Shown here: positions 36,286-48,303 of the stretch, piece after piece
Numbering within the stretch: position 1 is the first letter of the stretch
How the letters are laid out: the number at the start of each line of letters is the position of its first letter
Source: a virus
IMG/VR virus record: IMGVR_UViG_3300027973_000030
Coordinates: 1 to 64,000 of that record
DNA: 64,000 nucleotides
Strand: one strand, 5' to 3'
Notes under the pieces: generated by a model
The model's input: only the letters and a program-made list of their open reading frames with translations
Databases searched by the model: none
Told to the model about the DNA's origin: nothing
Program-made: the position numbers and the translations under genes

Positions 36286-36702
36286 ATGGCAATCAACAAA
36301 GTAGAGATCTATGTATCTCAAATTCTAGAGGATTTAGACAATGGTCTAACCTGGTTAAAGAAAGACGACTTAGGATATGGAAGTATCCAAGATAAGTACA
36401 ATGCAAAAGAGCAACAGATCGCTATGATCCGTAAACATCCTGCTTTAAAGGATGCAGAAACTACAGTTACAGTATTTACTGTAATTGATGATACAAAAAA
36501 TAATAATAATGCAGGAACAACCACCAATGACACTAGTGTCAGACGAGATGAGATCAATTTGGAAAGCTTACCAAAGACTAATATCGGGGACACAAGATCT
36601 ACGGATACAAGCGTCATATCTCAAGGTAACAACCAGACTGCTATTAGAATCACAGCAGAGAGTGGTGCAGAATCCGACCTCGCAGCATTTGCAAACCTTT
36701 AA
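36286..36702 (+). CDS. Unknown protein with disordered C-terminus
   Basis: A 138-residue protein. The first 60 residues are helical (MAINKVEIYVSQILEDLDNG, then YGSIQDKYNAKEQQIAMIRK); the rest is Asn/Thr/Ser-rich and disordered (TKNNNNAGTTTNDTSVRRDE). It lies 25 nt before the MoxR-like ATPase and could be a partner of it. No family recognised. Confidence 0.6.
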   Translation: MAINKVEIYVSQILEDLDNGLTWLKKDDLGYGSIQDKYNAKEQQIAMIRKHPALKDAETTVTVFTVIDDTKNNNNAGTTTNDTSVRRDEINLESLPKTNIGDTRSTDTSVISQGNNQTAIRITAESGAESDLAAFANL

Positions 36703-36727
36703 CACACAACCCAAAAATACATTAAAA

Positions 36728-37864
36728 ATGTCTAAAGTAAAATCAATTACAAAAAAGTCTACGCAGGAAGTAAGAACTATTGATACATCATTAATCAATA
36801 AAGAAGAAGTATTTAAAATGCTAGCTCTAGCAGAATCTACAGGTTTACCCTGTTTATTAGTAGGTGCACCTGGCGTAGCTAAAACTAAAACAGTATTGGA
36901 TTATGCAAAAGCTTGGTTAAACAGAGATGGTAATATGACTGCACAAGACTTTGCTAATAAAATCTATATATTAGAGACTGATGAAGGTACTAAAGCATCA
37001 GAGATCAAAGGTATGCCTGATTTAGGTAAGTTATTTACTGAAAATATCTATGATCTTAATACACCAATTGCTGAAGCAGAGATTGTTATCATTAATGAGG
37101 TAGACAAAGCATCTTCAGCTATACGTAATGCTATGTTAGGTGTAATGAACGAGAAGTTCTTATTCAACGGTAAGCACAAAATCCCATGTAAGTGGAAGTT
37201 ATTCATTGCTACATGTAATGAAATACCGAAAGATGAGATTGGATCTCCTTTCTGGGATAGATTTATGTTAAAGCATACTGTTAACCGTGTATCTGCAGGT
37301 GAACTAGTTAAGTATTTTAACAAAGGGGCCCGTAACTACAAAGAAAAGTTTACAATTGGTATACCATCTAAAACTGAAATAGAGTCTTTAGAAGTACCAG
37401 TTAATAAGTTAGAAAAATATCTTGAGGTGGGTTACCAAAACAGTTCAGATCGTACGTTAACTTTCGTACCTAGTCTAACTAAAGCGGTATCATACATCTG
37501 GGACATTAGTATAGATAAAGCACTTGTGAAAACAGCACAAATTATGATTGGACAATCAGCAGGTTCTGAATTACAGAACAAGTTGATGTCTCCAGAAGTT
37601 AAAGCTGTTATGAGCAAAGTGGAAATGTTACATTCTCACAGTTCTAATGAGCAGTTAGAATTAGCTATTGCTGAAATAGAGAGCTTAATCAATACTTACA
37701 CTTCTCGTGGTATCATGGATGAAGGACAAGTAGAAGAAATAGAACTTTCTATGCAGTATATATTACAGAATCACCCTGCTCGTGTAGATAACCAAGGTTC
37801 AGAAGACTTTGAAGCTATGATGTCTGAATCTGAAGTAGAACAAGCCTCTGTTCAAGCTTTTTAA
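36728..37864 (+). CDS. MoxR-type AAA+ ATPase
   Basis: A 378-residue ATPase starting MSKVKSITKKSTQEVRTIDT; an upstream in-frame ATG at 36485 lies within the preceding gene and is rejected. Walker A is LLVGAPGVAKTKTVLDYA, with the MoxR-like GxxGxAKT form. Walker B is EIVIINEVDKASSAIRNAML, followed by a sensor-1 region (LFIATCNEIPKDEIGSPFWD with the typical ATxNP-like segment). MoxR ATPases work with vWA-domain proteins in complex assembly or metal-chelatase roles. The next gene encodes exactly such a vWA protein. Confidence 0.85.
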   Translation: MSKVKSITKKSTQEVRTIDTSLINKEEVFKMLALAESTGLPCLLVGAPGVAKTKTVLDYAKAWLNRDGNMTAQDFANKIYILETDEGTKASEIKGMPDLGKLFTENIYDLNTPIAEAEIVIINEVDKASSAIRNAMLGVMNEKFLFNGKHKIPCKWKLFIATCNEIPKDEIGSPFWDRFMLKHTVNRVSAGELVKYFNKGARNYKEKFTIGIPSKTEIESLEVPVNKLEKYLEVGYQNSSDRTLTFVPSLTKAVSYIWDISIDKALVKTAQIMIGQSAGSELQNKLMSPEVKAVMSKVEMLHSHSSNEQLELAIAEIESLINTYTSRGIMDEGQVEEIELSMQYILQNHPARVDNQGSEDFEAMMSESEVEQASVQAF

Positions 37865-37932
37865 CACAGGGTTATAGATTGATAGCCAATAACTTTTATT
37901 GGAAAGATTCAAATTTATATAAATACAATGAA

Positions 37933-37982
37933 CTCACTAGCAAGATGGACTTATTTTGTTCATCTGCTGGTGAGCTTTTTTA
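37933..37982 (+). terminator. Intrinsic terminator between MoxR and vWA genes
   Basis: CTCACTAGCAAGATG (37933-37947) pairs with CATCTGCTGGTGAG (37961-37974) with a G-T pair and a bulge, loop about 13 nt, followed by CTTTTTTT. It limits the level of the vWA gene relative to the ATPase gene unless a promoter lies in the short A/T leader (37983-38008). Confidence 0.8.
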
Positions 37983-38008
37983 ATTTATAATCCTTAAAAT
38001 AAATTAAC

Positions 38009-39526
38009 ATGGCACTGAAAAGTCTCAGTACAGGAAAGCAGTATAAGAATGTTTATACCATCCTAGAAAAAGTAAAGAAAGGAGAGATACAATCTCACTA
38101 TAAAGATACAGAAGGATTATTTGGTAAGCTTAACTTCTATAAAAAAGGAGATCTTATCAAACCTCACATGCATTATATAGATGAAGATAAACTTAGCTCA
38201 ATAGTAAGAGCTCATATTAATGATCCACAAGGAGTTAATACCGACTATAATAAATTTCAAAGAAGTGCTAGTTTTAATAAAATATCTGACGATAGAAAGC
38301 CTGATTTCCGTGCATTTTCTGAGAAATTAATAGAAACTTATAATAAGTTTCCTAAACATCTTAAGAATGACATCTTTAAGATGTTCTATCATAAAATGGA
38401 TAGACTAGACTTTGAAGAGCGTACAGATAAAAATTACGGTCAGTACAAATTTTTAGAAAGAGCTAACAATCCTGTTTCTAAAATTATGACAGAAACAAGT
38501 AATCTTAAGTCTTCAATTTTTGCAAGAAACTTAATGAGATATTTTGCTATGCAGCTAACTATGATGGAATATGTAGATCCAGATGCAGCAAAACAAATAA
38601 TGAATGGTCTTAATGGTAGTTCTGAGTTTGATAATGAAGACTTAGATAAATTAATGAAAGACATGCTTGATAATAAACTATCTAAAAATATGTTAGATGA
38701 TGCTGTAAAAGATGCAACAGAAACATGTAAATCTTTGGATGAAAGTATGCCTAAAGATATACAAGATAGCTTGTTTGAAAACATAAAAGATGGCGGTGGA
38801 GCTTCTAAAATAGGACCTGAGTATCTAAAACAGGTGGCTGAAGACATTAGACGTATTAATCTCTCTTTAGGTTCATTAAAAGAAAAGATTAAAAAACTTA
38901 TGGACAAATCCACGTCATACTTTAGTGCTAAAAAAGAGACTATATATGAAGACTTATTTAATTCTGATAATATATCAGCGTTAGATGATTATGTATTCTT
39001 ACATCCAAAGCTTAGAAAAGTAATGATAGAAGATATCATTATTAAAGACACTAAAGCTATAGGTAAGATTGATATATACATAGACATTTCAGGATCAATG
39101 TCTGGTAACTGTGGAGTAAAAGATAAAGATGGAAATAATATAGATAAGCTAGATTTCTGTAAAGCTTTTGCACTTAAGTTACAAGAACTAGATTTGTTAA
39201 ATAAAATCTACGTATTTAATGATCGTGTAAGAAGTTTAAAAACAGATATATTTACAATAGCTGCTTTAGGTACATCAGGCGGTACGTGCATAAACAATGT
39301 GGTTGAACATATCAATCAACATAGTACTAATGCATTAGTAGTGACAGATGCTGAAGACAGATGTCGTATATATTCCGACAAAGCTTTCTTTATAGGTATT
39401 AACGGTGCTAGATTTGATTACTTTAATGAATCAGTTATGCAACAATACTCTGATGCAGGTCAAGCAGTAGTCTTTGATGGTAGTAAAATCTATAAAGTAG
39501 ATAAAAAAGGTGAAGTTATAGGTTAA
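38009..39526 (+). CDS. vWA-domain protein, partner of the MoxR ATPase
   Basis: A 505-residue protein. The N-terminal 340 residues are helical and charged. The C-terminal vWA domain starts near residue 350: GKIDIYIDISGSMSGNCG carries the MIDAS motif DxSxS; ALGTSGGTCINNVVEH holds the conserved Thr; and ALVVTDAEDRC the third Asp. This resembles the CobT/vWA partner of MoxR/CobS-type ATPases, also seen in cyanophages. The pair could remodel a host or virion complex. The gene ends convergently, overlapping the barrel-protein gene by 11 nt. Confidence 0.85.
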   Translation: MALKSLSTGKQYKNVYTILEKVKKGEIQSHYKDTEGLFGKLNFYKKGDLIKPHMHYIDEDKLSSIVRAHINDPQGVNTDYNKFQRSASFNKISDDRKPDFRAFSEKLIETYNKFPKHLKNDIFKMFYHKMDRLDFEERTDKNYGQYKFLERANNPVSKIMTETSNLKSSIFARNLMRYFAMQLTMMEYVDPDAAKQIMNGLNGSSEFDNEDLDKLMKDMLDNKLSKNMLDDAVKDATETCKSLDESMPKDIQDSLFENIKDGGGASKIGPEYLKQVAEDIRRINLSLGSLKEKIKKLMDKSTSYFSAKKETIYEDLFNSDNISALDDYVFLHPKLRKVMIEDIIIKDTKAIGKIDIYIDISGSMSGNCGVKDKDGNNIDKLDFCKAFALKLQELDLLNKIYVFNDRVRSLKTDIFTIAALGTSGGTCINNVVEHINQHSTNALVVTDAEDRCRIYSDKAFFIGINGARFDYFNESVMQQYSDAGQAVVFDGSKIYKVDKKGEVIG

Positions 39527-40862
39527 TCTTAGATCCTATAACAGCAAAATATAACATGGGAACCTCGGGATTAGTAGAAATACTAGTCTTGAGTCCTATG
39601 TTTAACTTAAATCTCTTAGTAAAAGAGTAATCAAAACCAAAACCTGTAAGTATACCCATATCTGAAGACTCAGTAAAACTACCTTCTTTAGTAAGATATA
39701 TTAAAGGACTACCTGATAAATATATATCAGGAGATATAGATAACCGTTTACTTAGTGTAAATGGTTTAGTGTAGAATAATAAAATAGAACTAGTTAAACT
39801 AATTTGACTAGATGCATCTATCATTGGGTCCGGCTGGTACGCTGCTTCAGCAAAACTCAAAGTGTAATTGACACCAGTTACACCCCATTTTCCTAATGGT
39901 TTTATGTAAGCATATGTACCAAAACCAAACTTTGTACCGAAAGCATAAGCTGCTGTAAAACCAAAGTTAGATATACCTTGGAGTTTACCTTCATCAAAAT
40001 GCATTAAAGTATATCTAGAACTAATAGCAAACTGTTGTAGATTGCTCCACACCATACCGGTTACTCCCCAGGAAGATTGTCCAGTCATAGAAGACTGTGA
40101 TATCCCACCGGTCATAATAATACTGAAACTATTATCTAGACTTTGCCCACCAGTAAAGTCAGAGTTAAATAATATAGGATTTACTTTAGCAGGTCCCTTA
40201 GCGGCAGCTTTAGATTTAGATCCCCCAGATTTAGATGATGAACTTTTTGATTCAGATTTAGACTCAGACTTAGATTCTGAGCTACTTGATGAAGACTCTG
40301 ATTTAGAATCTGATGATGAAGAAGAACTTTCCCCGCTAGAGCTACTACTGCTAGACTCTGAGCTCGATCCTTGAGAATTGCTTGAACTAGAAGCAGAGCT
40401 ACTAGCTGAGGAAGACGCAGAAGAACTTGCAGATGAAGCAGCACTACTAGAAGCTGATGAGGCGGCTGAACTTGCTGCTGATGAAGCTGCACTAGCCGCA
40501 GCAGAAGAAGCTGCCGTAGAAGCAGCCGCAGAGGCTGCAGCACTTACTGCAGCAGAAACAGCACTGGCTGTAATCTGAGTACTAGTAGCTGTAGCTTGAG
40601 CAACAGAACAGGGAGATAACTTTCTATAATCTTCATAAACTTGATTGAGCCAACTATTAAAAGCCCCGCTCCTAACATCAGCAGACGTAAAGACTCTAGA
40701 CTTATTGTAAAAAACAATAACAGTACTACCAGTGATAGGGATAACAAACGTAGAGACCACTTTTGTACAAGGGTCAACAAATGTCTGTACAAGAGTTTGA
40801 GAGTATCCATAAAATGGTAGGATTACTACTAAAAATAGTAAAAATATAAACCGTTTCATCAT
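39516..40862 (-). CDS. Secreted Ser/Ala-rich protein with beta-barrel-like C-terminus
   Basis: A 448-residue protein in three parts. A clear signal peptide (MKRFIFLLFLVVILPFYGYS) is followed by a ~80-residue domain. Residues ~105-215 form a long low-complexity tract: Ala/Ser repeats (AASAAxSAASSAASSASSSA type) passing to Ser/Glu/Lys repeats. Residues ~225-448 alternate hydrophobic and polar residues with many Gly and aromatic residues (SWGVTGMVWSNLQQFAISSR; YAFGTKFGFGTYAYIKPLGK), as in outer membrane beta-barrels. Likely exported to the outer membrane of the host. The tract would act as a spacer across the periplasm or at the surface. Role unknown; it overlaps the CsgG-like gene by 4 nt. Confidence 0.75.
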   Translation of the reverse strand: MMKRFIFLLFLVVILPFYGYSQTLVQTFVDPCTKVVSTFVIPITGSTVIVFYNKSRVFTSADVRSGAFNSWLNQVYEDYRKLSPCSVAQATATSTQITASAVSAAVSAAASAAASTAASSAAASAASSAASSAASSASSSAASSASSSASSSASSSASSSSNSQGSSSESSSSSSSGESSSSSSDSKSESSSSSSESKSESKSESKSSSSKSGGSKSKAAAKGPAKVNPILFNSDFTGGQSLDNSFSIIMTGGISQSSMTGQSSWGVTGMVWSNLQQFAISSRYTLMHFDEGKLQGISNFGFTAAYAFGTKFGFGTYAYIKPLGKWGVTGVNYTLSFAEAAYQPDPMIDASSQISLTSSILLFYTKPFTLSKRLSISPDIYLSGSPLIYLTKEGSFTESSDMGILTGFGFDYSFTKRFKLNIGLKTSISTNPEVPMLYFAVIGSKINL

Positions 40863-41590
40863 TTAGTGAAGATTGCTTTCTTCACCATTCTATCTAAAAT
40901 ACGAGCACATGCTATATCTAGAGCTTTTTTCGTAGCAATAGAAATAGTAGATTGATTAAATTTTACAGGGTCTAAACTAGCGTCAGATAATCCTGATGTT
41001 TCTTTAGTACTTTTAGCTTCACCCAATCCAGAACCAGATATAATGGTACCCGTTTCAGCGTCAGTGAATCTCACTTGCAAACCGATACGAGTAACCATCA
41101 ACTGTTTTGTATCCCCCTTTATATACACAGATTCGTCTTCTGATATAGAGTAATCATAGCATTCTATAGTAACAAAGTACTTAGCTAGATTAATCTTACC
41201 ACGACCATCTAGTTTATTCTCAGATATCCCGGCAGCGGAAGCTTGAAACTGCTTCACCATACGGTTTTTAATCTCTGTTTTATCCTCAGTAAACTTGAAC
41301 CTATTAAGGTTCTCTAAATATTCCATAGATATGTTAGCTACGCCAAGACCTACACGCTTTTCTTTAAGCTCAGGGTATTGTTCGTACATCTCATCTGATA
41401 TACCACACTTAAGAATTTGTATAGGTATTTGCACACCTTCATAATCCATAAACTGACTAATGTCTATAGCTTTTTCAAAACTAGCTTTATAATTCTCAGT
41501 GGTAGTCTTAGCTATTTGTGAAAAACCAGTATGCCCTATTAAGAGCATACTGGATAGAAACACAAACCAAACAAAATATTTCTTAATCAT
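40859..41590 (-). CDS. CsgG-like secreted protein
   Basis: A 243-residue protein with a signal peptide (MIKKYFVWFVFLSSMLLIGH, cleavage after GFSQ). Residues ~125-240 match the CsgG pattern: KINLAKYFVTIECYDYSIS, then QLMVTRIGLQVRFTDAETGT, the DAxTGxI element and a long helix (ATKKALDIACARILDRMVKK). Classical CsgG is a lipoprotein that forms the curli secretion pore; this one lacks a lipobox Cys. It may form an oligomeric ring or help exported phage proteins. Neighbours are all envelope proteins. Confidence 0.7.
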   Translation of the reverse strand: MIKKYFVWFVFLSSMLLIGHTGFSQIAKTTTENYKASFEKAIDISQFMDYEGVQIPIQILKCGISDEMYEQYPELKEKRVGLGVANISMEYLENLNRFKFTEDKTEIKNRMVKQFQASAAGISENKLDGRGKINLAKYFVTIECYDYSISEDESVYIKGDTKQLMVTRIGLQVRFTDAETGTIISGSGLGEAKSTKETSGLSDASLDPVKFNQSTISIATKKALDIACARILDRMVKKAIFTK

Positions 41591-41808
41591 GTTTTTAATT
41601 TAGTAGAGTATTTGGTAAGTAACCAATATAGCAGCCAAAAGACCCCTGACAAGCAGTAGAATATGATATCTGTAGCCCAGAAGCTCCCAGTAATATTTAA
41701 GAGAGTCTTGAATAAAAGATCGTATCCTAAAGGTAGGAAGAACATTGCCAGCATTAAGCTGATATCTTTGAGAGAATTCACGCTCCGTAGTCTGTTTCTT
41801 TTGTTCAT
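41587..41808 (-). CDS. Small two-helix membrane protein, holin-like
   Basis: A 73-residue protein with two membrane segments, SLMLAMFFLPLGYDLLFKTL and FWATDIIFYCLSGVFWLLYW (residues ~17-36, ~43-62), and short charged ends. It overlaps the CsgG-like gene by 4 nt. The alternative frame at 41818-41600 starts with the phage-like hydrophilic MDPDEQKKQTTEREFSQ and stays open nearly as long, so the N-terminus is uncertain or a frameshift joins the two. Confidence 0.55.
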   Translation of the reverse strand: MNKRNRLRSVNSLKDISLMLAMFFLPLGYDLLFKTLLNITGSFWATDIIFYCLSGVFWLLYWLLTKYSTKLKT

Positions 41809-41832
41809 CAGGATCCATGGGAGTTAATTAAG

Positions 41833-42450
41833 TTAAACAATATCTTTTATCTTGCCACACTTAAGACATTCTAATTCACCGTCTCCATCAGCGTCACCCC
41901 AAACGTGTTCACACTGACGATGTGCAAAATATTCATCAATCTTACCATCACCATCAAAGTCTAGACCGTCCATTGTACCGTCACCGTCTTCATCAATTTC
42001 TACACCTTTCTTAACTGGTACAGCAATTGGTTGTTCTGCTTTAACTTCAGCTTTAGAAGCTTGTGATTGAGCATTAGCTCTATCAGCAGCAGCTAAAAAT
42101 GCAGGATCTACTAAAGGTGTATGATCTTTAGGAGACTCTTTCATATCGTTTGTATGAGATAGAGTTACACCATCTTCTTCATCCATTTTCTGTACTAACA
42201 TTTTATCTTTATCTGTATCAGAGAACCAATAATCAATAATTTTACCATAAGAGCCAATAAAAGCTCCTAGTAACAATAATAATAACTCTTTCCATTCTCC
42301 TGCAATAGCAGTACCGTATGTAATAGCAGTAAAAATACCTGCTATAATAAGCATAAAAGAACCTAATACTAACGCTGTAATAAACCAGCGTCTTTGCATC
42401 ATTTCTCCTAACAGTTGTTTAAATCCACCAGATTCTGTGTTGTTTTGCAT
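41833..42450 (-). CDS. Membrane protein with Ca-binding-type DxDxDG repeats
   Basis: A 205-residue protein. Two membrane segments lie near residues 20-45 and 58-70 (WFITALVLGSFMLIIAGIFT and ELLLLLLGAFIGSYG). A flexible Ala/Lys/Glu middle leads to a C-terminal block with DEDGDGTMDGLDFDGDGKID and later DADGDGELECLKCGK. These DxDxDG loops resemble EF-hand, dockerin or thrombospondin type-3 calcium sites; CxxH and CxxC also suggest a zinc site. It could anchor or dock partners of the envelope module. Confidence 0.65.
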   Translation of the reverse strand: MQNNTESGGFKQLLGEMMQRRWFITALVLGSFMLIIAGIFTAITYGTAIAGEWKELLLLLLGAFIGSYGKIIDYWFSDTDKDKMLVQKMDEEDGVTLSHTNDMKESPKDHTPLVDPAFLAAADRANAQSQASKAEVKAEQPIAVPVKKGVEIDEDGDGTMDGLDFDGDGKIDEYFAHRQCEHVWGDADGDGELECLKCGKIKDIV

Positions 42451-42467
42451 ATATTTATATTAATTGA

Positions 42468-42770
42468 TTACCACTTTGGAGCTTCTTCTTTAAACTCATC
42501 ACCTTCTTTCTTTTTAACAGGAGCCACAGGTTTAGGATCTGCAGCTTTCTGATTAATAATAACAGTTTTACCTCCAGCAGCTTGAGACTGCTGATTAGAG
42601 TTAGTGATGTTAATAACTGGAGCAGGAGCTGGAGCAGCTGCTTTATCTTCTCCTCCACCAAATAAGGTTGAACCTAACCATGCCCCACCAGCTGTTACAA
42701 CTGTAGCTATAGTACCTAATATTGTTTTTTTTAAACTTGAGCCGGTTGACTCTTCTTTTTCTTCTGACAT
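42468..42770 (-). CDS. Small membrane protein with Ala/Pro-rich tail
   Basis: A 100-residue protein with one hydrophobic segment near residues 16-38 (ILGTIATVVTAGGAWLGSTL), a repeat APAPAPV linker, Asn/Gln-rich middle, and a charged C-terminus (VKKKEGDEFKEEAPKW). Single-span with long tail, as in spanin- or TonB-like linkers. It lies in the envelope operon. Confidence 0.6.
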   Translation of the reverse strand: MSEEKEESTGSSLKKTILGTIATVVTAGGAWLGSTLFGGGEDKAAAPAPAPVINITNSNQQSQAAGGKTVIINQKAADPKPVAPVKKKEGDEFKEEAPKW

Positions 42771-42776
42771 AATATG

Positions 42777-43154
42777 TTATTTTATAATTATTGGATGTTT
42801 AACTTCTTTACCTTTTATATCTATAAAGATAAGATCATAATCTTGCTTAGTCAAGCCAGATAGATCATATACTTTTTTAGTTAATTCTTCTGTAGCAGTA
42901 AAACCCTCTTTCTTAACTGGGTCTTCTTTACCAAATGGTACAATCTGTACAGAATATTTAGCTCCAACTGTTGTCTCAAACTCAGCTGTAATGCTGTTAC
43001 CCACTTGAGTGATAGACTTGATAGCCGTAGACTCGGATTTAACACCTAAATTAATAGGTTCTGGAGCTGGGATATCTATTTTAGTACAAGCATATAAAAT
43101 GACTGTCACTATAATAAGAAGATATACCACTAATAGTTTACTAGTTTCTTTCAT
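42777..43154 (-). CDS. Small lipoprotein
   Basis: A 125-residue protein with a lipoprotein signal: charged start MKETSK, hydrophobic core LLVVYLLIIVTVILYAC, acylated Cys followed by TKIDIPAP. The mature part is a ~95-residue beta domain (SITAEFETTVGAKYSVQIVP). It follows the cohesin-like gene by 1 nt and probably anchors to a host membrane. Family not recognised. Confidence 0.7.
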   Translation of the reverse strand: MKETSKLLVVYLLIIVTVILYACTKIDIPAPEPINLGVKSESTAIKSITQVGNSITAEFETTVGAKYSVQIVPFGKEDPVKKEGFTATEELTKKVYDLSGLTKQDYDLIFIDIKGKEVKHPIIIK

Positions 43155-43155
43155 T

Positions 43156-45288
43156 TTAAAAATTGTTATAACCGGTTAACTTAATTTGTGTAGAGTTAAG
43201 ATTTATTCCTAACTGATTTCCTTTAGAATCTGCAGCATCCATAAGAGGTGAAACTTTTACAGATGTAACAATGTTTACACCTTCACCAATTGTGCTAAAC
43301 TTAAGTTTAAATGGAGTGTTAGTTCCTTTAATAAACTCAGAGTTATTCTTATCTAAACCTCCAAACTTTACACGTCCATCTTTAGAACTAGCAAATACAT
43401 ACCAAGTGTTTGGTACATTACTTGTAAGCTCTTCAAATTTTATTTTAGCTGGATCAAATGTAAATTCAAACTGTAAACCAGAAACACTAGAAGTTTTAGC
43501 ATCTATATTTACTGGAATCTCAATTGTATTAGAAGTAACTGTTAAGTTATTTAAGTTTACATCAATATAACTAATATCAGCCGTAGAATTCATTGAAGTT
43601 CCTGTAGACTGTGCTTGTATAGACATAGTTTTAAATGCTGAGTTAGTAGCTAAGCTATTTACAGCATTTGTTTGTACAGTTGCTGTACCTGCAGAGCTTG
43701 TAACTACCTGCGAAGAGTGAGATCTGTTTACATCACCCCATAAAAGATATTTAAGGTCTAAGAAGGCATTAGTACCAAGAGTACCTGTTTTAAAATAAGT
43801 CTTAGGATAAGTAATATTCTTCCAGTTAGCTGCAGTGATGGTCCCCCATGAATGGTTAACATCTACATCAAATTCAAATTCTGCTTTTAAAGCATAATCC
43901 ACACCTTGACCATTAATATCACGTATAGAACTTACATATAACGAAGTACCGTCTTTAGCTTTAATAAGTGTTGAAGGTACAGTGTATTGGGCCCAAGTAC
44001 CATCATTAGATACATATTCAACTGGTCCAGTGTATATATCAAATAACTGAACACTTTTAACAGTGCTAGCTACTGAACTACTAGGAAATTCTCTCATATC
44101 AATACGTAATGTACTTGATGTAGAACCAGGAGTTACATATCCCCATTCTGCTTGACCTGCAATAGTTGTAACATCAGATGCTTTCCATGTAGGAAGACTC
44201 ATATAACCACCGCTACCTGAAGTGTAAGTACTAGGTAACATCATTAGCGTATCTAAACCCGCCACTTGTGCAAGAAGTTTAGGAAGATCACCACCATCTA
44301 TTGTTCTACTACGATTAATATCTGCAGCGTATAATGACTGTCCAGTTTTAATACTCTGACCGTTAGATCCGTCCAGTCCCATAGATGTAAATTCACCTTG
44401 AGCTGTAGTAAAATCAGATATAGTGATTGCATTACTATACATAGTATACAATTTATCTAACTCATGCATTACAGTAACCTCATACACTTTATCAGCAGAT
44501 AAAGAAGCTTGATTGATATCAACTTCACCTGTAGACGTAACAGGGAACATCACTCCTGTATTAGTAAGAGTATCTCTAAATGATACTTTTACATTAGATA
44601 TGCTATACAAGTTAGTATTTAAATCTACTTTAGCTGTTACATACTTACCATAGTTTTGGTTCATGATAACTGCTGTAGATAATGGATTTTCCATTGTAGT
44701 ATTATCATATTGACCAGATCCGTTCCATCCAGCAACAAAGTTTAACTTAATAGGATTAAAAGTGTATGCAGTGGAAGCAGCTTTAAGTCTAAACTTAATC
44801 TTAATAAAATCACTATAACCACTATAAGGCATAGCTGATGTAGTAGACCAAGTAAGCGTAGTTCTTAAAATAGCATATGGATTAGTTGTACCATAGTTAT
44901 AATTAGCGTATTGATAGTTAGTAGTACCATTAGTAGTAGTATTAGCTGCATTACCTGTTGCTACAGGAATAAAATTATAACCAGGATAGTTATAATAAGA
45001 AAGGTTAATAGTAGAGTTCTGAGGTAAAATACCACCGTTTCCACCTGTACCTGTGTGATTAACAGATACTAACTCAAAAACATCTCTGTCATATTGTACA
45101 TCAAATAATAACTGACGAGTAGTGGCATTGTTCATACCATTACCATAAATCACATAATCAAAAACGTCTCCTCTATTAAGAGAAGACCCACCTACATAAG
45201 TAGCAGCTTTGAACTTTTGTTGACTATACGAAAATGTCGCAATAAGTACTAAAAGTGTCGTAAAAAATGTCGTAATAAATTTTCTCAT
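43156..45288 (-). CDS. Secreted protein with cohesin-like and dockerin-like segments
   Basis: A 710-residue protein with a signal peptide (MRKFITTFFTTLLVLIATFS, cut after YSQ). Residues ~25-200 look like a cohesin-type beta-sandwich (GDVFDYVIYGNGMNN, RQLLFDVQYDRDVFELVSVN). Near residue 310 YAADINRSRTIDGGDLPKLL resembles a dockerin loop-helix, and LLWGDVNRS occurs near 515. Residues ~570-705 form a second cohesin-like domain (GLQFEFTFDPAKIKFEELTS). Cohesins bind dockerins in cellulosomes and in Bacteroidota surface complexes. A phage-encoded version is unusual and might link exported proteins at the host surface. Overlaps the preceding gene by one base (TAATG). Confidence 0.75.
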   Translation of the reverse strand: MRKFITTFFTTLLVLIATFSYSQQKFKAATYVGGSSLNRGDVFDYVIYGNGMNNATTRQLLFDVQYDRDVFELVSVNHTGTGGNGGILPQNSTINLSYYNYPGYNFIPVATGNAANTTTNGTTNYQYANYNYGTTNPYAILRTTLTWSTTSAMPYSGYSDFIKIKFRLKAASTAYTFNPIKLNFVAGWNGSGQYDNTTMENPLSTAVIMNQNYGKYVTAKVDLNTNLYSISNVKVSFRDTLTNTGVMFPVTSTGEVDINQASLSADKVYEVTVMHELDKLYTMYSNAITISDFTTAQGEFTSMGLDGSNGQSIKTGQSLYAADINRSRTIDGGDLPKLLAQVAGLDTLMMLPSTYTSGSGGYMSLPTWKASDVTTIAGQAEWGYVTPGSTSSTLRIDMREFPSSSVASTVKSVQLFDIYTGPVEYVSNDGTWAQYTVPSTLIKAKDGTSLYVSSIRDINGQGVDYALKAEFEFDVDVNHSWGTITAANWKNITYPKTYFKTGTLGTNAFLDLKYLLWGDVNRSHSSQVVTSSAGTATVQTNAVNSLATNSAFKTMSIQAQSTGTSMNSTADISYIDVNLNNLTVTSNTIEIPVNIDAKTSSVSGLQFEFTFDPAKIKFEELTSNVPNTWYVFASSKDGRVKFGGLDKNNSEFIKGTNTPFKLKFSTIGEGVNIVTSVKVSPLMDAADSKGNQLGINLNSTQIKLTGYNNF

Positions 45289-45932
45289 TATAATAGTTTA
45301 TTTACCAATGAAACAGAAGCTTTCTTTAGAGCTGAACTTAAATTTTGTTGGTTAAACTTACCTCCCTCATCTACAAGAAGAGCGGACATACTTACCTCAT
45401 CAGCAGATTCCTCAACAGTTACTTTCTTCTCAAGTTTACCATCTTTGTATAGGTATCCTCTAAGTCTAATAACAACTGACTCTTTATTATTATGTAATAC
45501 TGAAAAACTAGATTGTGTTTTTAATACATCTAGATATATAATTTCTGCTGTAATTTTTAAATTAGAAGCTTTATCTAGTTCATATTCTTTTTCTTGAACT
45601 ACTTCTTCTAATATATTCTTTAGACCAAACTCTAGATTACGATTACCAGCTAAAGAACCTACAACAACTTTATTAGTTACAGATGATATATCTATCTTTT
45701 TAGGTTCTTCATACCAAATATTACCTGGACTGTCTTTAAAGGTTCCATCAAATGTCCAACTAAACCAGTTAGAAATGGCCATAGTCTTTTCTACTTGTCC
45801 TGAAAAGTGCAGGTACACCATATAACCCTCAAAGGTTAATGCAAATGCTAGCCATAGTCCTACAAAGACTAAAAAAGCTTTACCTATTAGGTCAAATAAC
45901 TTTTGGCTGTAATTAATAACGAGTGCTCTCAT
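45288..45932 (-). CDS. Membrane-anchored envelope-module protein
   Basis: A 214-residue protein with one N-terminal membrane segment (LIGKAFLVFVGLWLAFALTF), then a periplasmic-type domain of alternating strands and helices (LKITAEIIYLDVLKTQ, VIRLRGYLYKDGKLEKKVTV) and a C-terminal helix (SSALKKASVSLVNKLL). The fold outline recalls small LpoB/CsgG-type periplasmic domains, though this is weak. It is the first gene of the envelope operon. Confidence 0.6.
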   Translation of the reverse strand: MRALVINYSQKLFDLIGKAFLVFVGLWLAFALTFEGYMVYLHFSGQVEKTMAISNWFSWTFDGTFKDSPGNIWYEEPKKIDISSVTNKVVVGSLAGNRNLEFGLKNILEEVVQEKEYELDKASNLKITAEIIYLDVLKTQSSFSVLHNNKESVVIRLRGYLYKDGKLEKKVTVEESADEVSMSALLVDEGGKFNQQNLSSALKKASVSLVNKLL

Positions 45933-45965: not shown

Positions 45966-46091
45966 TTATCTACCCTGCCCTCTATATTTACTAACTTTTT
46001 TAGCTTTAGGACCATTACTTTTACGTAAACGTCCACCTTTTCTTTTTCCAAAAGTGACTTTTCTTGAGTCACCAACTTTAGTTTTAGCCAT
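45966..46091 (-). CDS. Very basic 41-residue protein
   Basis: A short frame from ATG 46091 to TAA 45966-45968: MAKTKVGDSRKVTFGKRKGG, and on to SKYRGQGR. About one third of residues are Lys or Arg. Similar tiny Lys/Arg-rich proteins with a YRGQG end occur near late genes in Bacteroidota phages (recollection). Probably binds DNA in the virion or host nucleic acid. It lies between endolysin and the envelope module. Confidence 0.7.
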   Translation of the reverse strand: MAKTKVGDSRKVTFGKRKGGRLRKSNGPKAKKVSKYRGQGR

Positions 46092-46103: not shown

Positions 46104-46703
46104 TTATGCAAGTAATGCATGATATTCTTGAAAGTGTTTGATACGATCAGGTAAACCTATAGTACCGCCATTAACTCTTTTAGTTATTTTAGTTACTACT
46201 TCAGAACTAGATCCTGTATCTGCAATTAGATTTAAACCATTCTTTTTCCAGAACCATGCTGCAGAAGCTAACGCATGCTTAGAAGAAACTAAGTCTGGAT
46301 TAGCAAGAATATCATCTTCTACGGCTAGATCAAATGCAGTGTAGTTTTGTTTACCAGTTAACTGAATATAACCTCTTCCACGGAATTTATAACCTTCACC
46401 TGAAGCTTCTAATCCATTACCCATTCTACCACCGTATACACGGTTAGCAATCTTTTCTGGTTTACGAGCGTAAGCATCAGCTAATGCTTGAGTAGGAAAG
46501 TATTTCTTAAAAATACCCATAAGACCTTTAGCTGAGTAGTTAAGGTTTTCTTGAGTAAGTCTGAATCCACCAGATTCATGACCACACTGTGCTAAAAAAT
46601 GTGCAAGACGTAAAGACGTATTTACACCAAACGTATCTATGACAGCCGGGATCTGTGCAATTACAGTATCCGGAACATGCCCCCTAAGCTTTTCTAAATT
46701 CAT
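46104..46703 (-). CDS. Endolysin, GH19 chitinase-like
   Basis: A 199-residue protein with the GH19 lysozyme/chitinase pattern: AHFLAQCGHESGGFRLTQEN (catalytic Glu in HESGGF, residue ~43), LNYSAKGLMGIFKKYFP, YGGRMGNG, and the hallmark YKFRGRGYIQLTGKQNY (residues ~108-124). No signal peptide, so it needs a holin to reach the cell wall. It would cut peptidoglycan glycan chains at lysis. Neighbouring genes give the rest of a lysis cassette. Confidence 0.92.
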   Translation of the reverse strand: MNLEKLRGHVPDTVIAQIPAVIDTFGVNTSLRLAHFLAQCGHESGGFRLTQENLNYSAKGLMGIFKKYFPTQALADAYARKPEKIANRVYGGRMGNGLEASGEGYKFRGRGYIQLTGKQNYTAFDLAVEDDILANPDLVSSKHALASAAWFWKKNGLNLIADTGSSSEVVTKITKRVNGGTIGLPDRIKHFQEYHALLA

Positions 46704-46719: not shown

Positions 46720-46863
46720 TTACTTCTTCTTCTTACTAGCAGTACCAGACTTAATCTTTACTGATGTTTTCTTAACTTCGTTAGCAACTTGAGCTGCAGC
46801 TACTGCTTTCTCAACCTTGCTACCAAATAATAACTTCTTAACTAATTCAATAATCTTTTTCAT
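46720..46863 (-). CDS. Short cationic amphipathic peptide (47 aa)
   Basis: From ATG 46863: MKKIIELVKKLLFGSKVEKA and then an Ala-rich helix and a Lys-rich end (SGTASKKKK). The first 15 residues form an amphipathic cationic helix that could insert in membranes. It sits between endolysin and spanin-like genes. A longer reading from 46929 overlaps the previous gene and is less likely. Possible lysis helper or small DNA-binding peptide. Confidence 0.55.
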   Translation of the reverse strand: MKKIIELVKKLLFGSKVEKAVAAAQVANEVKKTSVKIKSGTASKKKK

Positions 46864-46864
46864 A

Positions 46865-47491
46865 TTATTTTGTTTTTTTACCAATCTTCCAGTATGTCTG
46901 GAAACCATAAGATATATTACCATTGACATCAGATCCGGCTTTTAAACCATAGATCTTGTCTGATTTAGTTTTTAATATTAATCCTGCTTCTGCAGAATGT
47001 AATCCTAATGTTTGTGTTGTATTAACACCACCACCTACGTATAACTGATTCTTTGGTTTAGCATAATTAGTAACCGTAACTGTTTTAGTAACAAACGGTA
47101 TCTTATAATTATACTGCCAGGATCTACCTATAATTTTATTTTCTCTTACAGAATCTGTAACTGAAACATAACCTAGTGTATCTAGCTTTACACTGTCAAT
47201 GTATATAGCTAATGCTGTATAACTTTTAACAAGATTATCAAACTGTATCTTTAGAGCTGCATAATTAGTATCAGCTAGATATTCAGTTTTACCTTCTATA
47301 AATAAGCTATCATGTATAATCTTAGCCGGCTTAGGTTTAGCAAAGATTAAGCTATCATGAACTGACCAAGTAGTATCATGTACTACAAGAGTATCAGACC
47401 CTTGATGACTAGCTCCACCTATACAACCTTTATTCTGTAAAAGAACAAAGACTACTAGTACACCTATAATGAAAAAATATATTTTATTCAT
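46865..47491 (-). CDS. Spanin-like membrane protein
   Basis: A 208-residue protein with an N-terminal membrane segment (IYFFIIGVLVVFVLLQ), followed by a periplasmic stretch with DTTWSVHDSL-type repeats, a helical middle (ALKIQFDNLVKSYTALAIYI) and a C-terminal beta part (LYVGGGVNTTQTLGLHSAEA). Bacteroidota phages carry such proteins with the lysis genes, where they probably act as the inner-membrane spanin. A lipoprotein is also possible because of KGCIGG after the segment. Overlaps the holin-like gene by 8 nt. Confidence 0.65.
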   Translation of the reverse strand: MNKIYFFIIGVLVVFVLLQNKGCIGGASHQGSDTLVVHDTTWSVHDSLIFAKPKPAKIIHDSLFIEGKTEYLADTNYAALKIQFDNLVKSYTALAIYIDSVKLDTLGYVSVTDSVRENKIIGRSWQYNYKIPFVTKTVTVTNYAKPKNQLYVGGGVNTTQTLGLHSAEAGLILKTKSDKIYGLKAGSDVNGNISYGFQTYWKIGKKTK

Positions 47492-47726
47492 CTACTTTCT
47501 TTTTAAATGAGAACTTATCTCCAGTGTCACCAATTAATGCTGCTATGCAGATGTACATTACTGACTCTACTAAAGCATCTGAAGGTTTAATATCACCATG
47601 AGAAAAGCTATTAGCAGTTAATGTAACACATAGAAACAGTGCACACATAAAACCTACAACAGGTTTAATGGATGTGGTTCCACGCTCATCTTTGAAAAGA
47701 TCTAAAACCCATTGTTTAAAAGTCAT
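47484..47726 (-). CDS. Holin-like membrane protein
   Basis: An 80-residue protein with two membrane segments, VVGFMCALFLCVTLTA (residues ~23-38) and ALVESVMYICIAALIG (~51-66), with a charged C-terminus (DKFSFKKKVDE). Size, topology and place in the lysis cassette fit a holin that permits endolysin release. Confidence 0.7.
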   Translation of the reverse strand: MTFKQWVLDLFKDERGTTSIKPVVGFMCALFLCVTLTANSFSHGDIKPSDALVESVMYICIAALIGDTGDKFSFKKKVDE

Positions 47727-48024
47727 ACTTAATTGTTTTATAATATTTACCTTTTAACGTTTTGTTATCAGGCAGAACAGCTAGAACTTGTTGAAAATCA
47801 ATAAGTTGTTTAGTAGGTTCTTCTGGAACACTTGCAGTTTTAAACATCTGACGCTCTAAATTATCAATCCTGGTCTTGTCTATATTAGACTGAGCCATTA
47901 ATAACTTTACATCAGATTTTATTTCGTTTACATCATTCCATATGAGTAAACTAACTAAAGATACTAGTGTAGGAAACACCCACACTTTAAAAGCTGCTAT
48001 AGACGGGTTTTCTCTAGGAGTCAT
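47716..48024 (-). CDS. Single-span membrane protein with coiled coil
   Basis: A 102-residue protein. A membrane segment (KVWVFPTLVSLVSLLIW, residues ~13-29) is followed by a coiled coil (VNEIKSDVKLLMAQSNIDKT, then RIDNLERQMF). The layout matches lysis-cassette spanin or holin-regulator proteins. It overlaps the holin-like gene by 11 nt. Confidence 0.6.
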   Translation of the reverse strand: MTPRENPSIAAFKVWVFPTLVSLVSLLIWNDVNEIKSDVKLLMAQSNIDKTRIDNLERQMFKTASVPEEPTKQLIDFQQVLAVLPDNKTLKGKYYKTIKYDF

Positions 48025-48033
48025 TGCATTACC

Positions 48034-48303
48034 TTATTTAGTAGGTTGAAACTCATAAACTAGACCAGCAGGCTTTTTTAAGCTAGCAATCAATGAGTTA
48101 GCAATGATTTTACCATTTCTGTCTTTACGTACAAAATATCTCATACTATTCTCACGAATGTTTTGAGGACTTGTAATAGTATCAGCAGCTGGAATCTCAA
48201 TAGTATCTACTGGAACTGGTTGTTCAGCAGAGATACTTTGCATTGTACCCGGAATAGGATATCCTAAATAATCCTTTTGGGCATAAAACTTTTTAGTTAC
48301 CAT
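48034..48303 (-). CDS. Small protein at the head of the lysis operon
   Basis: An 89-residue protein (MVTKKFYAQKDYLGYPIPGT) with no membrane segment; ends in a GLVYEFQPTK strand. The same-orientation genes follow it by 9 nt, so it opens the lysis operon. Phage fibre-type 'KKFYAQKDYLGYPIPGTMQ' openings occur in small virion proteins of Bacteroidota phages. Role unknown. Confidence 0.55.
   Translation of the reverse strand: MVTKKFYAQKDYLGYPIPGTMQSISAEQPVPVDTIEIPAADTITSPQNIRENSMRYFVRKDRNGKIIANSLIASLKKPAGLVYEFQPTK

What the first reader, a model, noticed from the sequence alone, without database searches (positions are those of the whole stretch)
39516..45932. Phage operon of envelope-targeted proteins: cohesin/dockerin-like, CsgG-like, barrel-like, lipoprotein
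Seen: three proteins with N-terminal signal peptides (encoded at 39516, 40859, 43156), one with a lipobox (42777), and four with membrane segments, packed with overlaps. Known: CsgG forms a secretion pore in curli systems; cohesin binds dockerin in surface complexes. Inference: the phage builds a multi-protein assembly in the host periplasm and outer membrane. Possible roles are outer-membrane rupture at lysis, surface remodelling, exclusion of other phages, or secretion. Adjacent lysis genes make a role late in infection likely. I do not know a described phage system with this set.
Basis: partly seen in the sequence, partly recalled or inferred. Interest (0 to 1): 0.8.

Follow-up and report, generated by a model that had tools for sequence, protein, structure and literature searches.

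The report
Phage module coating host with lectins
Large viruses of Bacteroidota bacteria carry an optional set of genes that appears to build a complex across the wall of the infected cell and to hang sticky, sugar-binding proteins on its outside, in most relatives by borrowing the bacterium's own secretion machine; no such viral system was found described.

Summary
The eight genes are real, tightly packed and on one strand, and the fold guesses survive testing. G has a cohesin domain (Pfam, above cut-off). B models as a CsgG/PelC fold (Foldseek, top PDB hits CsgG). A models as a 12-stranded outer-membrane barrel (top hit FapF, the amyloid secretion pore) on a periplasmic tether. F is a lipoprotein. 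H proves to be a distant homologue of B. The set is a strict module: 101 of 101 non-redundant IMG/VR contigs that carry B also carry G, E, A and H, as does the cultured Flavobacterium phage immuto. B was found in 1 of 396 Bacteroidota genomes. In 64 of 101 modules the cohesin protein ends in a type IX secretion (T9SS) sorting signal; in 36 others, including the window's type, lipoprotein F is present instead; never both. Companion proteins carry C-type lectin and LamG domains. A close relative with its lysis genes lacks the module, so it is accessory and not the lysis machine. Best reading: a phage-encoded surface-display/adhesion apparatus. B lacks CsgG's pore hairpins, so 'CsgG pore' is not supported. 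What it does for the phage is untested.

The parts
45288..45932 (-). H, 214 aa: N-terminal membrane segment plus a periplasmic CsgG/PelC-like domain; distant homologue of B
   Evidence: Profile-profile match of H family to B family, probability 97%, E=1e-10; H present in 101 of 101 modules; weak Pfam Lipoprotein_16 match, below cut-off
43156..45288 (-). G, 710 aa secreted protein: signal peptide, cohesin-like region, interrupted dockerin-like F-hand pair, C-terminal cohesin domain (588-680); no T9SS sorting domain
   Evidence: Pfam PF00963 E=3e-7; PF18962 not found in the whole 131-kb record; relatives in the same gene order
42777..43154 (-). F, 125 aa lipoprotein (lipobox LYAC); found only in modules whose cohesin protein lacks a T9SS sorting domain
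   Evidence: Sequence; lipobox in 68 of 75 unique relatives; mutual exclusion 36 / 64 / 0 both / 1 neither
42468..42770 (-). E, 100 aa: short N-terminus, one probable membrane helix, Ala/Pro/Asn-rich tail, invariant C-terminal Trp
   Evidence: Alignment of 34 relatives; present in 101 of 101 modules
41833..42450 (-). D, 205 aa: membrane segments and a DxDxDG-rich tail; probably part of the lysis cassette rather than of this module
   Evidence: Present in 70 of 101 modules, and kept next to the endolysin gene in a relative without the module (L457)
41587..41808 (-). C, 73 aa small membrane protein, optional
   Evidence: Present in 19 of 101 modules
40859..41590 (-). B, 243 aa secreted, most conserved protein of the module; CsgG/PelC fold without membrane hairpins
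   Evidence: AF2 model pLDDT 76; Foldseek PDB top hits CsgG, E=6e-6, then PelC, GNA1162, HpaA, FlgT, LptE; no PF03783 match; 491 IMG/VR stretches
39516..40862 (-). A, 448 aa: signal peptide, small beta domain with two invariant Cys, long helix (87-134), about 95 disordered Ser/Glu/Lys-rich residues, 12-stranded outer-membrane barrel (230-447)
   Evidence: AF2 model, barrel pLDDT about 88; Foldseek PDB top hit FapF, E=3e-8, then NanC; present in 101 of 101 modules
46104..46703 (-). Neighbour, not part of the module: GH19 endolysin
   Evidence: Pfam PF00182 and PHROG 181 endolysin E=7e-70; within the flanks of 62 of 101 modules
46720..48303 (-). Neighbours, not part of the module: small membrane and periplasmic proteins of the presumed lysis cassette (46720-46929, 46865-47491, 47484-47726, 47716-48024, 48034-48303)
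   Evidence: ORFs; relatives of several of them remain beside the endolysin in a relative without the module

Best explanation
The genes are an accessory phage module that makes the infected Bacteroidota cell carry a phage-encoded complex across its envelope and display phage-encoded adhesive proteins. E and H are anchored in the inner membrane; B (CsgG/PelC fold) with H forms a periplasmic, probably ring-like assembly; A is a 12-stranded outer-membrane barrel tied by a long disordered tether and a small domain to that assembly. G is the surface scaffold: its cohesin binds dockerin-like regions of itself or of companion lectin proteins. It is held at the outer membrane either by a T9SS sorting domain, which makes it a cargo of the host's type IX secretion system (most relatives), or by the lipoprotein F (the window's type). 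The most likely benefit is adhesion: infected cells stick to glycans, particles or other cells, or mask receptors. Shown: gene set, folds, sorting signals, lectin domains, dispensability. Inferred: the assembly, the topology, the cohesin-dockerin pairing, F as substitute anchor, and the benefit.
For: Cohesin in G and in 55 of 71 relatives, T9SS sorting domain in 44 of the same 71, confirmed by TIGR04183 above cut-off in two. Ten virus records of the sorting-domain type each hold exactly one PF18962 match; where the cohesin match can be compared, it lies just upstream in the same gene. Companion proteins: Lectin_C in 29 of 49, Laminin_G_3 in 17 of 49. F and the sorting domain exclude each other, 36/64/0/1. 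B has a CsgG/PelC fold, H is its homologue, A is a barrel nearest FapF. Core set in 101 of 101. Cultured example: Flavobacterium phage immuto gp013-gp019. A relative with its lysis genes lacks the module. B essentially absent from Bacteroidota genomes: 1 of 396, 1 confirmed locus in the GTDB scan.
Against: No experiment, no localisation, no complex prediction. The window's own G has no T9SS sorting domain and its genome no Lectin_C match (the second had no positive control), so surface exposure of G in the window's own phage rests on F and analogy. Lectin companions have no sorting domain, so how they cross the outer membrane is unexplained. The F / sorting-domain exclusion needs only 2 changes on the B tree, so it is one or two historical events, not 100. 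Dockerin-like regions mostly fail Pfam. The B model is of middling confidence (pLDDT 76, TM-scores about 0.45).
Confidence: 0.55

Rival explanations
1. A secretion system of its own, working like curli (type VIII) or Fap secretion: A is the outer-membrane channel, B/H its periplasmic ring, E the inner-membrane part, and the lectin/cohesin proteins (or an unknown product) are the cargo.
For: A's nearest solved structure is the amyloid secretion pore FapF and B's is CsgG; lectin companions have no T9SS sorting domain, so they need some way out; pelagiphages and the methylophage Melnitz carry partial or complete curli operons (PMC7029224, PMC9599517, PMC9004378).
Against: 12-stranded barrels resemble each other (NanC scores as well as FapF); B has no membrane hairpins; no ATPase, peptidase, CsgF or curlin-like gene in the module.
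Confidence: 0.25
2. Exclusion of competing phages: the module masks or blocks surface receptors, or occupies the host's type IX secretion/gliding machinery, which flavobacterial phages are thought to need (general knowledge).
For: Accessory, envelope-targeted, present in a virulent phage; cohesin proteins carry T9SS sorting domains. It can be a consequence of display and does not contradict the main reading.
Against: Exclusion proteins are usually single small proteins; five conserved genes plus lectins look like more than a block. No sequence match to a known exclusion protein passes a usual threshold (E=0.024 for immuto's E).
Confidence: 0.2
3. Outer-membrane rupture at lysis: the set replaces or supplements spanins.
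For: In the window it is continuous with the endolysin and small membrane genes; an endolysin lies within the flanks of 62 of 101 modules and a holin-like small protein in 60 of 101, with about 20 changes each on the B tree.
Against: A relative with the same lysis genes lacks the module (L457), so it is not needed for lysis; in immuto it lies among nucleotide-metabolism genes; lysis does not need lectins or T9SS sorting signals.
Confidence: 0.08
4. Virion components (head or tail decorations).
For: Lectin and LamG domains also occur in phage tail proteins (PMC7824862).
Against: Signal peptides, a lipobox and T9SS sorting domains direct these proteins out of the cytoplasm, where virions are built; the genes are apart from the head and packaging genes at 10-19 kb.
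Confidence: 0.04

Closest known systems
Phage-borne curli (type VIII secretion) operons of pelagiphages and the methylophage Melnitz (HTVC008M gp014-gp016; PMC7029224, PMC9599517, PMC9004378)
   Same: Phage-encoded envelope set with a CsgG-fold protein; function also unproven
   Different: No CsgF, no curlin repeats, no FecR or cyclase; B has no CsgG sequence match, no lipobox and no pore hairpins; barrel, cohesin, lectin and T9SS cargo are new here
Fap functional-amyloid secretion (FapF)
   Same: Barrel of the same size with an N-terminal periplasmic part and linker
   Different: Fold similarity only; no other Fap gene identified; N-terminal domain differs
Cohesin-dockerin surface assemblies (cellulosome type)
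   Same: Cohesin domain plus dockerin-like calcium-loop motifs on secreted proteins
   Different: In phages, no enzymes identified, dockerin-like regions interrupted and mostly below Pfam thresholds, lectins instead of catalytic domains
Type IX secretion (type A) cargo of Bacteroidota
   Same: Signal peptide plus C-terminal sorting domain PF18962/TIGR04183 on the cohesin protein of most relatives
   Different: Encoded by phages; replaced by lipoprotein F in the window's type
Surface-modifying morons such as lambda Lom and Bor (general knowledge, not tested)
   Same: Accessory envelope proteins in a phage genome
   Different: A conserved multi-gene complex in large phages, one of them virulent, not single lysogenic-conversion genes

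Membership tests
CsgG (curli secretion channel) | Match to the CsgG sequence family (PF03783) | tested here: not met
   No match in 11 module-bearing phage genomes at E<=1, while HTVC008M rings at 2e-54; hhalign to three CsgGs probability 2%
CsgG (curli secretion channel) | CsgG fold of the periplasmic domain | tested here: met
   Foldseek top PDB hits are CsgG, E=6e-6, probability 1.0; TM-scores about 0.45; shared with PelC, GNA1162, LptE
CsgG (curli secretion channel) | Two transmembrane hairpins and lipidation that make the outer-membrane pore | tested here: not met
   No lipobox; the loops in the hairpin positions are short and hydrophilic (alignment, model, alignments with CsgG)
Curli / type VIII secretion operon | CsgF and curlin-repeat subunits beside CsgG | tested here: not met
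   None recognised among the recurrent gene families within 9 kb of B in 101 modules; no dedicated CsgF or curlin search was made
Cohesin domain | PF00963 above curated cut-off | tested here: met
   Window G 31.1 bits vs 24.1; 14 of 16 records over cut-off
Dockerin | PF00404 duplicated F-hand module | tested here: inconclusive
   Loop motifs visible in G and companions, but Pfam passes E<=0.001 in only 5 of 120 proteins
Type IX secretion cargo | C-terminal sorting domain PF18962/TIGR04183 on a protein with signal peptide | tested here: met
   Met in relatives: 44 of 71, 64 of 101 modules, TIGR04183 over cut-off in two. Not met in the window's own G
FapF-type secretion channel | 12-stranded barrel with periplasmic N-terminal domain | tested here: met
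   fold only
FapF-type secretion channel | Fap operon partners and polypeptide export | tested here: inconclusive
   No Fap family appeared in the Pfam, PHROG and NCBIfam scans of the window's module; export itself is not testable here
Phage lysis cassette | Present whenever the lysis genes are present | tested here: not met
   L457 has endolysin and neighbours but its record has no B and the site shows none of A, B, E, F, G, H, only D

The most novel reading that the evidence does not exclude
A widespread, previously undescribed phage system in which a phage-specific trans-envelope machine (CsgG-fold pair B/H, tethered barrel A, inner-membrane E) works with the host's type IX secretion system to build a cohesin-dockerin-lectin coat on the infected cell, turning it into an adhesive or shielded factory.
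Probability: 0.45. Interest if true: 0.9.

Novelty: categorically new. Interest (0 to 1): 0.78.

Why it matters
Most genes of large Bacteroidota phages from lakes and seas are unexplained. This is a module of several undescribed families kept together in every B-bearing relative examined, with a cultured example (Flavobacterium phage immuto) in which it can be tested. If the reading is right, phages use the host's type IX secretion system and cohesin-dockerin chemistry, both thought of as bacterial, to remodel the surface of infected cells. That bears on how infected cells aggregate, sink or resist other phages in natural waters.

Tried and rejected
CsgG pore: rejected, see membership test. 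Recent capture from a host: not supported for B (1 of 396 Bacteroidota genomes, that one a 254-kb contig in a bacterial bin that carries the phage module). Lysis apparatus: rejected as main role because a relative keeps the lysis genes and lacks the module. D as a core part: rejected. Sequence search of PDB with the B profile and with G: no hit. DNA-level search of phage records: no match. Shared C-terminal export signal in the proteins without T9SS domain: looked for; G-type proteins of the window's close kin share a conserved end (IKLTGYNNF) and lectin companions another (YLIxTGY), but nothing common enough to call a signal. Promoter scan: at chance level. Treating the F / sorting-domain exclusion as 100 independent cases: rejected after the tree. 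Literature searches for phage with cohesin, T9SS or this set found nothing; most subscription papers and all bioRxiv preprints are outside the library.
Full report
WHAT THE WINDOW IS. The window lies in a 131,294-bp phage record of IMG/VR with portal, terminase, major head protein and DNA polymerase genes. No similar DNA was found in the phage collection. The finding's eight genes lie on the minus strand, tightly packed, directly downstream of a GH19 endolysin and several small membrane-protein genes. I call them H, G, F, E, D, C, B, A in order of transcription.

OBSERVATION. G has a cohesin domain above Pfam's cut-off. None of A, B, E, F or H has a confident Pfam or PHROG match, nor A, B or F an NCBIfam match, so the other guesses needed structure.

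B. B is extraordinarily conserved: 491 stretches in IMG/VR encode a relative, and 40 diverse relatives average 67% column identity. An AlphaFold2 model from that alignment (pLDDT 76, pTM 0.68) gives CsgG as the best PDB match, E=6e-6, followed by PelC, GNA1162, HpaA, FlgT and LptE, and the only strong viral match is annotated CsgG. So the fold is of the CsgG/PelC superfamily. But the sequence is not that of a CsgG: PF03783 finds nothing in 11 module-bearing phages while it rings in the pelagiphage HTVC008M, profile comparison with three CsgGs gives 2%, and the lipobox and the two membrane hairpins that form the CsgG pore are missing (my reading).

H. The H family is homologous to the B family (hhalign 97%, E=1e-10): a second CsgG-fold protein, anchored by an N-terminal membrane segment in the window's type and with a signal peptide in others.

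A. The model shows a signal peptide, a small beta domain, a 48-residue helix, about 95 disordered Ser/Glu/Lys-rich residues and a 12-stranded barrel with local confidence near 88. Two cysteines of the small domain are invariant. Best PDB match: FapF, the Pseudomonas amyloid secretion pore, then NanC. The barrel is well supported; a functional link with FapF is not, because barrels of one size resemble each other.

E. E has a probable single membrane helix, an Ala/Pro/Asn-rich tail and an invariant C-terminal tryptophan in 34 diverse relatives, which suggests a docking tail.

A STRICT MODULE. I collected the neighbourhoods of B from IMG/VR. Among 101 contigs with different B proteins and enough flanking sequence, all 101 encode G, E, A and H; D is in 70, F in 36, C in 19. 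An independent clustering of ORFs gives the same core, with A and E split into sub-clusters. Contigs with B reach 434 kb. Gene orders fall into a few types, mainly H-G-F-E-(D-C)-B-A (the window) and G-E-(D)-B-A-G2-H. Flanking genes differ: lysis genes, ribonucleotide reductase, others. A cultured phage has it: Flavobacterium phage immuto, gp013-gp019, annotated only as lectin, cohesin and hypothetical proteins. B is nearly confined to phages: one confirmed locus in the GTDB scan and 1 of 396 Bacteroidota genomes, both times the same MAG contig of 254 kb.

THE SURFACE PROTEINS. In relatives the cohesin protein ends in a T9SS type A sorting domain: Cohesin in 55 and Por_Secre_tail in 44 of 71 scanned proteins, TIGR04183 above cut-off in immuto gp015 and in L145. 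With a profile built from these, 64 of 101 modules have the domain, always within two residues of the C-terminus; 36 modules have the lipoprotein F instead; none has both; one (L226) has neither. On the B tree this needs only two changes, so it is a rare replacement and not a statistical correlation over 100 cases. Still, it suggests that F takes over the anchoring role. Whole-record searches find exactly one Por_Secre_tail in each of ten virus records of this type and none in the window's record. A second group of proteins, mostly downstream of A, carries C-type lectin domains (29 of 49) and LamG domains (17 of 49), with dockerin-like loops (DVNNDGxITISD) that mostly stay below Pfam thresholds. 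The window's G has both cohesin and dockerin-like loops in one chain; no Lectin_C was found in its record (without a positive control).

NATURAL ABSENCE. Searching with the terminase and portal found relatives. Four long contigs (93-128 kb) have no B. In one of them (L457, from a 100-kb record with a terminase 84% identical) the order UDG-MoxR-VWA is followed directly by D, a small basic protein, the GH19 endolysin and further lysis neighbours, while H, G, F, E, B and A are missing from the site. Two others (L458, L459) have different genes there. The records may be incomplete, but L457 shows the site itself. Hence the module is accessory, lysis does not depend on it, and D probably belongs to lysis.

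HOW IT MAY WORK. Shown: gene set, folds, sorting signals, lectin domains, dispensability. Inferred: E and H in the inner membrane, B/H assembly in the periplasm, A in the outer membrane with its tether reaching inwards, G displayed and linked by cohesin-dockerin contacts to itself or to lectins, anchored by T9SS or by F. The benefit (adhesion or aggregation, glycan binding, or exclusion of competitors) is not decided by any evidence here. The main gap is how lectin companions without a sorting domain cross the outer membrane; export through A is the obvious idea and would make the module a secretion system of its own.

COMPARISON WITH WHAT IS KNOWN. The nearest described phage systems are the curli operons of pelagiphages and Melnitz (PMC7029224, PMC9599517, PMC9004378; read, loci). 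They share a CsgG-fold protein and a speculated surface or lysis role, but have CsgF and curlin repeats, true CsgG sequence and no cohesin, lectin or T9SS signal described. A survey of jumbo phages (PMC7824862) mentions lectin domains on virions and no cohesin, CsgG or type IX system. The literature searches found no description of this set. I therefore rate the module as a new kind, with the reservation that its function is unproven and that not all literature could be searched.

Noticed in passing
window 45966-46091, minus strand: A 41-aa very basic protein (KVTFGKRKGGRLRKSNGPKAKKVSKYRGQGR) between endolysin and H; similar small proteins stand near the same genes in relatives L457 and L458.
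   Followed up: partly
window 36485-39526, plus strand: A MoxR-type ATPase (PHROG ATPase, E=2e-17) followed by a protein that looks like a VWA-domain protein, facing the module; the pair with a uracil-DNA glycosylase upstream is kept in relatives.
   Followed up: partly
L459 11849-14948: In this relative the MoxR gene is split in two pieces with two inserted ORFs that look like homing endonucleases.
   Followed up: no
L128 (CAIWBA010000291.1, 254 kb): A contig in a Bacteroidetes MAG carries the phage module and is probably a large phage binned with a bacterium.
   Followed up: partly
OR851715.1 (hit H9): A 1.5-kb record named Salmonella phage encodes a CsgG 96% identical to that of E. coli; it looks like host DNA rather than a phage gene.
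   Followed up: no
window 39516-40862: A's Ser/Ala repeat region leaves long alternative open frames on both strands (for example 40042-40374 + and 40181-40543 -); these look like by-products of the repeat.
   Followed up: no
L127 9935-10513 and relatives (cluster of 16 loci): A nuclease annotated as related to endonuclease G, with a signal peptide, lies beside the module in immuto-like phages.
   Followed up: no
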